Of a stretch of 64,000 bases of DNA, positions 11,934 to 60,579 are shown one piece after another. This stretch comes from Nocardia goodfellowii. Its GTDB lineage: Bacteria; Actinomycetota; Actinomycetes; Mycobacteriales; Mycobacteriaceae. The stretch covers positions 3,720,001 through 3,784,000 of the forward strand of contig NZ_JAGGMR010000001.1 in the NCBI RefSeq assembly GCF_017875645.1, given 5' to 3'. The notes under the pieces were generated by a model that was given only the letters and a program-made list of their open reading frames with translations, made no database searches and was not told the DNA's origin. A program made the translations under genes and the position numbers. Numbering within the stretch: position 1 is the first letter of the stretch; each line of letters starts with the position of its first letter.

Positions 11934-11984
11934 ATTGTGCGCCATTCCCGGGGTCTTGCCGCAAGCCCCGGGGTGCGATATATG
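11934..11984 (-). promoter_or_regulatory. Rifamycin-associated element (RAE) and promoter of rox
   Basis: On the minus strand the known RAE core GGGGCTTGCGGCAAG occurs inside a larger inverted repeat (CCCGGGG arms, 11947-11973). The rox promoter can be read as TTGCGG (11959-11964), a 19-bp spacer and CACAAT (11934-11939). On the plus strand TTGCCG (11956-11961), a 17-bp spacer and TATATG (11979-11984) form a divergent promoter whose -35 overlaps the first. RAE sites precede rifamycin-inactivating genes in actinobacteria. The promoter assignments are my reading. Confidence 0.85.
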
Positions 11985-12099
11985 TTGAAAAGGGAAGGGG
12001 ATTGCGTGGCCGGCCGGTCCTGCCGCCGGCAGCTGAAAAGCCTTGCTATTCGATTCGATTCGGGGCCGCATGCTCGCCCCCTCCGCCATCGCATAGCGG

Positions 12100-12246
12100 A
12101 TGTCAGAAGGCCGGTCGCGGGCCGCGTTCGGCGGCATCGAGCAGCGTTGCCAGATCCGGTGTGGCGCCGGGCGGTACGAACGTGTCCGGGTAGTGGTGCT
12201 CTACCAAGTCCGCAGGCGCGCTCCGCGCCGGACACTGCTTGGTGTT
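12100..12246 (-). pseudogene. Possible C-terminal gene remnant
   Basis: A minus-strand open frame closed upstream by a stop at 12247 encodes a segment with protein-like composition (HHYPDTFVPPGATPDLATLL, ending ERGPRPAF) before a TGA at 12100. No credible start codon or ribosome binding site exists, so it could be the decayed end of a lost gene. The family is not recognised, and chance coding is a real alternative in DNA this GC-rich. Confidence 0.22.
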
Positions 12247-12483
12247 ACTTCACCCTCACGGCGATATTCAGTTGGTCGGCCATACTTACCACCGTAGGCG
12301 GAAACATCCCGGCCACGGCGGTATTCACGGATCAGAATCGGACAGCGATGGTTAGCCGACTCTGTGCTGGGTATCACACTTGCGGGTAACTGCCCCCTGA
12401 TGAAGCTGCCGGAGTCGCACAAATGCGACAAATCCGTCGCGTTCCTTTTTGGTCGCAGCTTCACACCGTTGAGGAGGCAGTCC

Positions 12484-13680
12484 ATGATCAGCACGCCGTC
12501 CGGTTCCGGTTCGTTGATTTACAACATCCGGGAATCCGGTGCGCCACTAAATATCGTTATGGTGGCTCCGCCCTATTTCGAGATTCCACCCGCTGGATAC
12601 GGCGGCGTCGAAGCAGTGGTGGCACAGTTGGTCGACGCACTGGTCGCGCGCGGGCACCGGGTCACCCTGCTCGGCGCGGGCCGGCCCGGAACCACTGCCA
12701 CCCGCTTCATCCCGGTGTGGGACAAGATTCTCGCCGACCGGCTCGGCGATCCGTTCCCCGAGGTGGTCAACGCGCTGAAGGTGCGCGAAACCATTATGGA
12801 GCTGGCCCGCACCGAGCACATCGACGTGATCCACGATCACACGTTCGCCGGCCCGCTGAACGCGCCGGTGTATCGGTCGCTGGGTATCCCGACGGTCGTG
12901 ACCGTGCACGGTCCGGTCGACGGTGAGGAGCAGGAATACTACGGCGCGCTCGGCGATGCCGCGCAGCTGATCGCGATCAGTGACCGGCAGCGCAGTTTGG
13001 CGCCTCGGTTGAATTGGCTGGGACGCGTTTACAATGCGGTCCTGCCGAGTGCCTGGCCTTTCCAGAAGGAAAAACAGGACTATGCCCTGTTCCTAGGCCG
13101 TTACGCGCCCTACAAGGGCCCGGACCTGGCATTGGAGGCAGCGCATATCGCGGGCATTCCGCTGGTTTTGGCGGCGAAAATGAACGAGCCTGCGGAAAAA
13201 GCGTATTTCCAGCGTTCTGTCCGGCCGTTGTTGAGTGAAAAGGACTTTGTGTTCGGCGAGGCAGACGCGATTGCTAAGCGATTACTGTTATCGCAAGCGC
13301 GATGCTTGCTTTTCCCGATCCGCTGGGAAGAGCCATTCGGCATCGTAATGATCGAGGCCATGGCCTGCGGTACCCCGGTCGTCGCGCTGCGCGGCGGCGC
13401 GGTGTCGGAGGTCGTCGAGCACGGAGTCACCGGTTTCATCTGTGACGACCCGGCCGAACTTCCCGCGGCGATGGCCGCGGCGGCCGAACTGGACCCAGTC
13501 GCCTGCCGCCGCCGGGTGATCGAGCACTTCTCGGTCGACCGGCTCGGCGCCGGCTACGAGGCGTCCTACTACGCCGCGATGGAACGCGCCGAACTGCCGC
13601 GCATTTCGTCCGGCTCCCGCGTCACCGCGGCGACCGGCCGCGTGCTCGACCGCGACCTGTCGGTCGTGGCGAACAAGTAG
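12484..13680 (+). CDS. Glycosyltransferase family 4 (GT-B fold)
   Basis: This 398-residue cytosolic retaining glycosyltransferase transfers a sugar from a nucleotide donor. The N-terminal acceptor domain begins IVMVAPPYFEIPPAGYGGVE, with the glycine loop of GT4 enzymes. The donor domain has LFLGRYAPYKGPDLALEAA and the EX7E motif EEPFGIVMIEAMACGTPVVA. ATG at 12484 is preceded by GAGGAGG. Upstream in-frame ATGs lack a binding site. It is not of the GT1 type known for rifamycin glycosylation, so its position next to rox may be coincidental. The acceptor is unknown. Confidence 0.8.
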   Translation: MISTPSGSGSLIYNIRESGAPLNIVMVAPPYFEIPPAGYGGVEAVVAQLVDALVARGHRVTLLGAGRPGTTATRFIPVWDKILADRLGDPFPEVVNALKVRETIMELARTEHIDVIHDHTFAGPLNAPVYRSLGIPTVVTVHGPVDGEEQEYYGALGDAAQLIAISDRQRSLAPRLNWLGRVYNAVLPSAWPFQKEKQDYALFLGRYAPYKGPDLALEAAHIAGIPLVLAAKMNEPAEKAYFQRSVRPLLSEKDFVFGEADAIAKRLLLSQARCLLFPIRWEEPFGIVMIEAMACGTPVVALRGGAVSEVVEHGVTGFICDDPAELPAAMAAAAELDPVACRRRVIEHFSVDRLGAGYEASYYAAMERAELPRISSGSRVTAATGRVLDRDLSVVANK

Positions 13681-13685
13681 CTCCA

Positions 13686-13760
13686 CCAACACATCGGTCG
13701 ATCTCGGCAAAGACGCGCCGCTCCAGGCGCGGGCTGGGCCGAGATCGACCGGTGCGTTGG
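13686..13760 (+). terminator. Long hairpin terminator after the glycosyltransferase gene
   Basis: Arms at 13686-13708 and 13738-13760 pair over 23 bp. Their only two departures from perfect complementarity are G-U pairs in RNA. The loop contains a second small stem (GCGCC/GGCGC). The element sits directly after the stop codon at 13680. Confidence 0.65.
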
Positions 13761-13867
13761 GCGGGCTCGTCATGCCGGACGCCGGTGTCGAGGTCGGCCG
13801 GTGTCGGTTCTGTCCAAGACCACCGAGGGTGCCGTCGATAGGCTGTCGTCGGATCTGAGGAGGAACT

Positions 13868-14443
13868 TTGACACGTGAACTGGTGTACACGGGCTTCATG
13901 TCGCTCGACGGTGTTGTGGACTCGCCGGGCGGGCAGGTGGAGGGACACCGGAGCGGCGGCTGGGTGATGGAAACCGAGTTCGTGCCCGAGGCGTTCGCGC
14001 TCAAGGGCGAAGAACTCGCCGACACGACCGCGCTGATGTTCGGGCGGCGCAGCTACGAGGCGTTCGCCCCGACCTGGCGCGACTCCGCGGATCACGCCGG
14101 GTACAAGGAATTGCCTAAGTACGTGGTCTCGACCTCGCTGGCCGAGGACGACCTGATCGAGGGCTGGGGTCCGATCACGATCCTGCGGTCGGCCGAGGAC
14201 GTCGCGGCGCTGAAACAGGGCGACGGCGGCGCGATCTTCATGCACGGCAGCGCCGAGCTGGCCCGGCGATTGGCCGACGCGGACCTGATCGACCGATACA
14301 ACCTGCTCGTGTTCCCGGTGCTGCTGGGTGCGGGCAAGAGCCTGTTCAGCCGGGCGGACCGGGACAAGCAACAACTGCGTCTCCGCGAGTCCGCGACCTA
14401 TGCCAACGGTGTGGCCAAGCTCGTCTACGACGTCACGCGCTGA
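13868..14443 (+). CDS. Dihydrofolate reductase-like RibD C-terminal domain protein
   Basis: The product is a 191-residue stand-alone RibD_C/DHFR-fold protein, of the kind annotated as a putative reductase in actinobacteria. MTRELVYTGFMSLDGVVDSP at the N-terminus, MFGRRSYEAFAPTWR in the middle, and HGSAELARRLADADLIDRYN with FPVLLGAGKSLF at the end match the family. NADPH use is inferred. The TTG start at 13868 follows AGGAGGA at good spacing. The 3' end overlaps the convergent AraC gene by 19 bp. Confidence 0.75.
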   Translation: MTRELVYTGFMSLDGVVDSPGGQVEGHRSGGWVMETEFVPEAFALKGEELADTTALMFGRRSYEAFAPTWRDSADHAGYKELPKYVVSTSLAEDDLIEGWGPITILRSAEDVAALKQGDGGAIFMHGSAELARRLADADLIDRYNLLVFPVLLGAGKSLFSRADRDKQQLRLRESATYANGVAKLVYDVTR

Positions 14444-60127: not shown

Positions 60128-60130
60128 CCC

Positions 60131-60415
60131 TCATTCCCCCTGCAACTCGGGCGCGGACCGCACCTCGCGGAACAGCGCTGCCGCTTCGTCTTTGAAGTCC
60201 GGTGGTATCGGCGCGGCTTGTGCCTCGTTGGCGAGCAACGCCTCTTCGAGCAGGTCTCGTTCGATCTGGCGCTCGACGGCGGCGTCCACGTAGGCGGAGA
60301 ATCCACGCGCGCCGACGCGGTCTTTGATCGCGCGGATGTTTCCGGCTCGCAGGGAGACGCTCACCTTGGCCGCCGGCCCCTCTCCCGGCGGGAAGTCCGC
60401 AGGTAGTGCACTCAT
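60131..60415 (-). CDS. Ribbon-helix-helix antitoxin partner of the PIN toxin
   Basis: The product is a 94-residue DNA-binding antitoxin. The strand and two helices of a ribbon-helix-helix domain read KVSVSLRAGNIRAIKDRVGA and GFSAYVDAAVERQIERDLLE. The acidic C-terminus (PPDFKDEAAALFREVRSAPE) would wrap the toxin. A palindrome covers the promoter, allowing autorepression. It is upstream of the toxin gene, as is usual. Confidence 0.8.
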   Translation of the reverse strand: MSALPADFPPGEGPAAKVSVSLRAGNIRAIKDRVGARGFSAYVDAAVERQIERDLLEEALLANEAQAAPIPPDFKDEAAALFREVRSAPELQGE

Positions 60416-60422
60416 GACCCGA

Positions 60423-60445
60423 GTTTACTACTCCGAGTAGCAAAC
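60423..60445 (-). promoter_or_regulatory. Antitoxin autoregulation operator
   Basis: The 23-bp inverted repeat has arms GTTT-N-CTACT and AGTAG-N-AAAC around a 3-bp centre, 8 bp upstream of the antitoxin ATG. It contains the perfect core TACTCCGAGTA and overlaps a TAGTAA -10-like hexamer on the minus strand. Confidence 0.65.
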
Positions 60446-60491
60446 GGCCTGGGCGCTGGGTGCTGGTCGTCGCGTGGAGCGGGCAAAAAGA

Positions 60492-60523
60492 AAGGGCAAG
60501 GAGTGTGTTTCTCCTTGTCCCTT
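60492..60523 (-). terminator. Intrinsic terminator-like hairpin facing away from helR
   Basis: AAGGGCAAGGAG (60492-60503) pairs with CTCCTTGTCCCTT (60511-60523), with one bulge. On the minus strand the stem is followed by TTTCTTTTT, so it fits an intrinsic terminator in that direction. It lies about 10 bp beyond the -10 of the outward RAE promoter and would end that transcript at once. Confidence 0.65.
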
Positions 60524-60528
60524 CTCAC

Positions 60529-60579
60529 TGTATAGCGCACCCCGGGGCTTGCGGCAAGGGCGGGGTGAGGGCGCATAAT
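60529..60579 (+). promoter_or_regulatory. Rifamycin-associated element (RAE) and promoter of helR
   Basis: The core GGGGCTTGCGGCAAG, preceded by GCACCCC (60537-60558), is identical over 22 bp with the rox element. The helR promoter reads TTGCGG (60549-60554), a 19-bp spacer and CATAAT (60574-60579). Outward, on the minus strand, TTGCCG (60552-60557), 17 bp and TATACA (60529-60534) form an overlapping divergent promoter. RAE is an established rifamycin-response element. The promoter reading is mine. Confidence 0.88.

What the first reader, a model, noticed from the sequence alone, without database searches (positions are those of the whole stretch)
11934..60579. Two rifamycin-associated elements link rox and helR into one regulon
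Upstream of rox (11947-11973) and helR (60537-60558) the same 22-bp segment occurs, containing GGGGCTTGCGGCAAG. RAE is a known cis element of rifamycin-inactivating genes and of helR. Here an enzyme that destroys the drug and a protein that frees the drug's target carry the same switch 48 kb apart. That predicts joint induction and layered resistance in a probable Nocardia.
Basis: partly seen in the sequence, partly recalled or inferred. Interest (0 to 1): 0.85.

Follow-up and report, generated by a model that had tools for sequence, protein, structure and literature searches.

The report
Back-to-back promoters inside rifamycin-response element
The shared DNA switch in front of two rifamycin-resistance genes is real and of a known kind, and comparison with its relatives suggests that it is a pair of back-to-back promoters, one of them pointing away from the gene, which gives a concrete lead on the open question of how these bacteria sense the drug.

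Summary
Confirmed: rox (rifampin monooxygenase) and helR both carry the rifamycin-associated element (RAE); the shared identity is 23 bp. That the RAE links rox and helR is already known (Streptomyces venezuelae, cited in PMC10719064). This genome has four exact copies: rox, helR, a rox-like gene and an rgt-like gene.

Not described in the papers I could search: the RAE is the middle of an ungapped module. In 174 non-redundant sites an antisense -10 (TANNNT) lies 21-26 bp left of the palindrome centre (166 sites; at most 3 at any other offset from 12 to 39), mirroring the known sense -10 at +21 to +26 (173 sites). The antisense -10 has T at -12 (97%), the sense one C (87%). The predicted antisense start is G in 97%. 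In 67 of 174 sites a hairpin begins there, 55 of them with a U-rich tail, and the arms co-vary. Here helR and rgt have it, rox and the rox-like gene do not.

Reading: two divergent promoters share their -35 region inside the RAE; the stronger-looking antisense one makes a tiny, often terminated RNA; rifamycin shifts output to the sense one. The trigger is unproven: simple competition cannot induce, so a bound regulator or a polymerase-polymerase effect is needed.

The parts
10447..11877 (-). rox, rifampin monooxygenase
   Evidence: NF033145, 866 bits, cut-off 800 (residues 10450-11877)
11951..11969 (-). RAE dyad of rox (GGGGCTTGCGGCAAGACCC), centre 11960
11934..11939 (-). sense -10 of rox (CACAAT), +21 to +26 from the dyad centre
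   Evidence: NANNNT at this offset in 173 of 174 sites
11981..11986 (+). predicted antisense -10 at rox (TATGTT)
   Evidence: TANNNT at this offset in 166 of 174 sites
11993..11993 (+). predicted antisense start (G) at rox; no terminator hairpin seen behind it
   Evidence: G at this place in 168 of 174 sites; sequence; rox (L002) is not among the 51 hairpin sites listed
60620..62827 (+). helR, RNA polymerase recycling motor HelD/HelR
   Evidence: NF041465, 1496 bits, cut-off 1051; NF041258, 1369 bits, cut-off 1100
60544..60562 (+). RAE dyad of helR, centre 60553; right outer arm degenerate (GGCG where most sites have NCCC)
60574..60579 (+). sense -10 of helR (CATAAT)
60527..60532 (-). predicted antisense -10 at helR (TACAGT)
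60494..60520 (-). predicted antisense transcript of helR: start G at 60520, hairpin of 27 nt
60485..60493 (-). U-rich run TTTCTTTTT behind the hairpin (predicted terminator)
   Evidence: (8 U in 9)

Best explanation
The RAE is the centre of two divergent sigmaA-type promoters whose -35 regions overlap inside the palindrome. The antisense promoter, with the better -10, starts a very short RNA that is often ended at once by a hairpin and U-run; the sense promoter, with a poorer -10, drives the resistance gene. The dyad GGGN-CTTG-YSR-CAAG-NCCC is read by a symmetric, probably dimeric protein on the shared -35 region, and rifamycin exposure shifts use from antisense to sense, so that rox, helR, rgt and the rox-like gene would rise together. 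Shown at sequence level: module, register, base asymmetry of the two -10s, co-varying hairpins, gene targets. Inferred: that the antisense promoter fires, the bound protein, and the shift by rifamycin.
For: Mirror register in 166 and 173 of 174 sites. -12 base: T in 168 of 174 antisense, C in 152 and T in 2 of 174 sense; predicted antisense +1 is G in 168 of 174. Hairpin at the start in 67 of 174, swap mean 28.8, maximum 37; in 56 further sites 33, swap mean 18.7, maximum 25. With the core left free, all 28 loci the tool returned and measured, and 58 of 60 chosen for a variant core, have CTTG-N3-CAAG, in both orientations of the centre. Geometry-only pattern: 180 of 394 genomes, control 0. 195 of 203 sites directly precede helR, rox or rox-like, rgt, arr or rph. 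The sense promoter P2 with the RAE at its -35 was mapped in M. smegmatis according to PMC10719064.
Against: No antisense transcript has been seen here or in the papers searched. The hairpin is missing in most sites: 107 of 174 lack it at -33, 12 of 13 arr sites lack it, and so do rox and the rox-like gene of this genome. The 19-bp spacer and TTGYSR hexamers are poor -35 elements. No regulator is known or linked. helR of this window has a degenerate right arm and is missed by the geometry pattern. The upstream sense promoter P1 reported for M. smegmatis (PMC10719064) is not accounted for: no -10 for it is conserved in 20 sites of another genus of the family.
Confidence: 0.5

Rival explanations
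1. No regulator: the polymerase itself is the sensor. A rifamycin-arrested polymerase parked at the antisense promoter ends its interference with, or even helps, the sense promoter, in the manner of the B. subtilis dual-promoter alarm.
For: Stronger-looking antisense and weaker-looking sense promoter, as reported for B. subtilis (PMC12802891); no regulator among the targets; a toy model in which both promoters can be occupied and only productive antisense firing ejects the sense complex gives more than 5-fold induction in 28% of parameter draws.
Against: The promoters are divergent, so the antisense polymerase runs away from the sense one; with overlapping -35s they should exclude each other, and pure exclusion never exceeds 1-fold in 200,000 draws; in B. 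subtilis, shortening the distance so that the polymerases clash abolished induction; the conserved GGG/CCC arms are not explained.
Confidence: 0.25
2. Plain operator for a rifamycin-responsive regulator; the antisense -10 is incidental or a by-product.
For: Symmetric 19-bp dyad with an orientation-free centre; PMC10719064 and PMC12802891 suggest an unknown factor.
Against: The antisense -10, the start base and the hairpin are conserved in exact register across families, more than a by-product needs.
Confidence: 0.2
3. RNA element: the palindrome works as a hairpin in the leader of a sense transcript from an upstream promoter.
For: The palindrome could fold in RNA; PMC10719064 and PMC12802891 place the RAE in a 5' UTR and mention an upstream sense promoter in M. 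smegmatis.
Against: The sense -10 lies downstream of the RAE, so transcripts from it would lack it; positions -6 and +6 do not co-vary; the left TATA has no T at the -7 place on the sense strand in any of 174 sites; no Rfam match in the window at gathering scores, nor in loci L001, L003, L004, L176, L184 at E up to 1.
Confidence: 0.05

Closest known systems
Rifamycin-associated element (RAE) of Actinobacteria (Spanogiannopoulos 2014, Surette 2022, Hurst-Hess 2022, seen here only through PMC10719064, PMC8655204 and PMC12802891)
   Same: 19-bp palindrome upstream of rifamycin-resistance genes, rox and helR among them; overlaps the -35 of a downstream sense promoter.
   Different: The accounts I read mention no antisense promoter, mirror register or antisense terminator; they describe two sense promoters.
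B. subtilis helD/pps dual-promoter rifampicin alarm (PMC12802891)
   Same: A stronger antisense and a weaker sense promoter before a helD gene; induction by low rifampicin.
   Different: There the promoters are convergent with 39 bp between starts and no RAE; here they are divergent with starts about 66 bp apart and overlapping -35s.
M. smegmatis rpoBC two-promoter response (Zhu 2018, as told in PMC10719064)
   Same: Rifampicin shifts output between two neighbouring promoters.
   Different: Tandem promoters in the same direction; a 2-fold effect is quoted.

Membership tests
RAE | 19-bp palindrome upstream of a rifamycin-resistance gene | tested here: met
   rox, the rox-like and the rgt-like copy match the dyad GGGN-CTTG-YSR-CAAG-NCCC; helR matches except for the right outer arm
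RAE | overlap with the -35 region of a sense promoter | tested here: met
   sense -10 at +21 to +26 in all four copies of this genome and in 173 of 174 sites
RAE | rifamycin induction that depends on the element | not testable with these tools
   needs expression data
B. subtilis-type dual-promoter alarm | convergent sense and antisense promoters | tested here: not met
   the two -10s point away from each other
B. subtilis-type dual-promoter alarm | antisense promoter stronger than sense | tested here: inconclusive
   sequence only: T against C at -12; no activity measured
MerR-type long-spacer promoter (recalled) | operator palindrome between -35 and -10 | tested here: not met
   the dyad lies on the -35 position, not centred in the 19-bp spacer
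Intrinsic terminator of the antisense RNA | GC-rich hairpin followed by a U-run | tested here: inconclusive
   met at helR and rgt, not at rox and the rox-like gene of this genome; 67 of 174 sites have the hairpin, 55 of these with at least 3 U in 9 nt

The most novel reading that the evidence does not exclude
The RAE is a regulator-free drug sensor: a decoy promoter pointing backwards, often with its own mini-terminator, samples the RNA polymerase pool, and a polymerase arrested on it by rifamycin gates the back-to-back resistance promoter, so that the inhibited target itself is the signal.
Probability: 0.25. Interest if true: 0.85.

Novelty: new variant of a known kind. Interest (0 to 1): 0.62.

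Why it matters
How the RAE works is stated to be still unresolved in PMC12802891 (2026). A conserved antisense promoter in exact mirror register, found in front of helR, rox, rgt, rph and arr in several actinobacterial families, turns that question into base-level predictions: an antisense start at one named G, a very short RNA where the terminator exists, and a promoter pair that cannot work by simple competition alone. It would place actinobacterial and bacillar rifampicin sensing under one theme, an antisense against a sense promoter, reached by different architectures.

Tried and rejected
Sense -10 at the left TATAGC: rejected; its -7 place is C in 167 and T in 0 of 174. RNA stem: positions -6 and +6 do not pair consistently. 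A gene served by the antisense promoter: a crude ORF rule found a divergent ORF within 450 nt at 143 of 223 sites, largest family 4 members, so no conserved partner. Linked regulator: none among the assigned targets. Upstream sense promoter P1: no conserved -10 in 20 same-family sites. Phage spread: 0 matches of GGGGCTTGCGGCAAGRCCC in the viral collection. Plasmids: 35 records, 27 of them Streptomyces, matched the helR module loosely; not followed up. Arr in this genome: no match to PF12120. Sites L341 and L342, which match the geometry pattern on both strands: each has one rif gene only, so they are not two-sided operons.

Caveats of selection. The first set fixes the 15-mer and the named scan also fixes RCCCC, so conservation of those columns is by construction; loci L005-L020 (inexact hits in the own genome) were left out, sites within 200 bp of a locus end were dropped, and 203 sites were reduced to 174 at 80% identity. 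The 60 sites were picked because their core differed, 88 of the 90 loci L231-L320 gave a site. The hairpin count is a broad peak, since shifted stems also score: 53 at -34, 50 at -31, 43 at -30, 42 at -35 beside 67 at -33. A stricter rule (score 18, start within 15 nt) gives 51 of 174, 43 of them starting at the predicted +1, against 34 of 522 shuffles and 13 and 15 of 174 in control regions. The 8 unassigned sites: L084 and L153 lack the antisense -10 and are probably chance; L079 and L108 look by eye like helR remnants; L102 has an rgt-like start and then a helR-like ORF, also by eye; L056, L099 and L199 are unresolved.
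Full report
Observation. The genome has four exact copies of the 15-mer, and all four sit in one longer shared module; the two one-mismatch copies lie in contexts without it. The four genes are rox and helR (NCBIfam above cut-off), a rox-like monooxygenase (335 bits to NF033145, below its cut-off of 800; the protein is cut by the end of the fetched locus) and an rgt-like glycosyltransferase (628 bits to NF000354, below its cut-off of 800 but matched over profile positions 1-400 of 411). No Arr was found in this genome (PF12120).

Known part. PMC10719064 (passages and section 9 read) says that Surette and colleagues used the RAE of rgt to find rox and helR in S. venezuelae, that deleting half of the RAE abolished helD induction (Hurst-Hess 2022), and that the RAE overlaps the -35 of a sense promoter P2 whose start was mapped in M. 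smegmatis. PMC12802891 (outline with abstract, passages and the model section read) reports a convergent promoter pair before B. subtilis helD as a rifampicin alarm and says that the mechanism of the RAE remains to be elucidated. [quoted passage not shown] One original paper (Hurst-Hess 2022) is not held; the Surette and Spanogiannopoulos papers I did not look up and know only through the above. So a rox-helR link through the RAE is a known kind of finding.

Spread. The exact 15-mer is in 107 of 148 genomes of the genus, 162 of 397 drawn from the order, 44 of 85 genera, and 117 of 394 drawn from the class, 37 of 137 genera. The reversed-pattern control gave, by my count of the tables, about 9, 13 and 10 hits.

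The module. I took 203 distinct sites with 200 bp on each side from loci of these searches and from the named scan; 174 remain at 80% redundancy. Aligned without gaps on the dyad centre (position 0), clear conservation runs from about -41 to +40, with a weaker tail to about +59. Left: A(-26) 98%, T(-22) 99%, A(-21) 97%. Right: A(+22) 99%, T(+26) 99%. Read outward from the centre, each side is a -10 hexamer at the same distance: TANNNT antisense, CANNNT sense. Antisense TANNNT is found at offset 21 in 166 of 174 and at no other offset from 12 to 39 in more than 3; sense NANNNT at offset 21 in 173, next best 26. Among the 166 sites in front of an assigned rif gene the numbers are 164 and 166. 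In 20 sites from another genus of the same family (arr 9, rox 7, helR 3, rgt 1) the right half of the left TATA is often changed while the antisense TANNNT mostly stays, which marks the antisense hexamer as the constrained unit.

The antisense unit. Seven bases beyond the antisense -10 the base is G in 168 of 174, the expected start. A hairpin whose 5' arm begins there is found in 67 of 174 sites; at positions -39 to -59 the number is 0 to 6; close to the peak shifted stems also score. Exchanging the downstream part among sites lowers 67 to a mean of 28.8 (maximum 37 in 100 rounds), and exchanging it only within search groups to a mean of 31.2 (maximum 46), so the arms change together. After the hairpin 55 of the 67 have at least 3 U in 9 nt, where the strand average of 0.19 would give about 1.7. 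In 56 further non-redundant sites from the core-free search, 33 have the hairpin against a swap mean of 18.7, maximum 25. By gene, with the hairpin allowed to begin at the first three positions: helR 39 of 86, rgt 15 of 27, rox 13 of 28, rox-like 1 of 8, rph 3 of 4, arr 1 of 13, unassigned 1 of 8. In this genome helR and rgt have it, rox and the rox-like gene do not. So the terminator is common, not universal, and hardly seen at arr.

The core. A search by flanks only, leaving 27 positions over the core free, hit 157 of 397 genomes of the order with reversed-control columns of 0. Of the loci measured, 28 of 28 returned by the tool and 58 of 60 picked for a variant core have CTTG-N3-CAAG; the centre is CGG, CCG, TGG, CCA or CGA, thus both orientations; -6 and +6 vary without pairing. 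This is what a symmetric protein contact looks like. A pattern with only the two -10 rules and the half-sites hits 180 of 394 genomes in 57 of 137 genera with control columns of 0; it finds three of the four copies of this genome and misses helR, whose right arm is degenerate.

Targets. By tblastn against six reference proteins, 195 of 203 sites lie directly in front of helR (101), rox or rox-like (41), rgt (34), arr (13) or rph (6). Of the 88 variant sites 86 are assigned to the same genes and the other two precede proteins 40-43% identical to this helR. No regulator gene is among the assigned targets, and no conserved gene lies on the antisense side (crude ORF rule).

Mechanism. The sequence says: a good antisense and a poor sense -10, sharing the -35 region. 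In a toy model of mutual exclusion, in which a fraction of polymerase is drug-bound, sense output never exceeds the drug-free level in 200,000 parameter draws; if both promoters can be occupied and only productive antisense firing ejects the sense complex, more than 5-fold induction occurs in 28% of draws. Simple exclusion therefore cannot explain the 25-fold induction of M. abscessus helD quoted in PMC10719064. Either a protein on the dyad or an interaction of two polymerases is needed. I favour the protein, because the GGG/CCC arms and the orientation-free centre go beyond sigma contacts; the polymerase-only reading keeps 0.25.

Shown and not shown. Shown: sites, module, register, base asymmetry, co-varying hairpins, targets. 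Not shown: any transcript, any binding, any induction. That the antisense promoter is not in print rests on the searches in an open-licence library; the original RAE papers may hold more.

Noticed in passing
60544-60562 (helR RAE): The right outer arm of the helR dyad is degenerate (GGCG where most sites have NCCC); a few other loci, such as L027 and L339, look alike.
   Followed up: partly
9400-10410 (-), behind rox on the same strand: An AraC-type regulator gene (PF12625, PF12833) starts about 40 bp behind rox; whether it belongs to the rifamycin response was not tested.
   Followed up: no
60415 (-), upstream of helR: A small ORF (94 aa) runs away from helR; the predicted antisense terminator lies between it and the RAE.
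   Followed up: no
12484-13677 (+), upstream of rox: A glycosyltransferase gene (PF00534, PF13439) runs away from rox about 490 nt from the predicted antisense start, which has no terminator here.
   Followed up: no
L275, L313: Proteins 40-43% identical to this helR, with a different N-terminal region, also stand behind RAE modules; L102 seems alike by eye, behind an rgt-like remnant.
   Followed up: partly
L079, L108: Apparent helR remnants (by eye) stand next to RAEs whose antisense -10, and at L108 also the sense -10, departs from the rule.
   Followed up: partly
module positions +28 to +59 and -20 to -15: A conserved stretch behind the sense -10 (GGCCGAGGCCAGAACCTGCGGAAATGGGA-like) and a GYGCTA block before the antisense -10 are not explained.
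   Followed up: no
plasmid records: RAE-like modules on large actinobacterial, mainly Streptomyces, plasmids; 9 of 35 records are predicted mobilizable.
   Followed up: no
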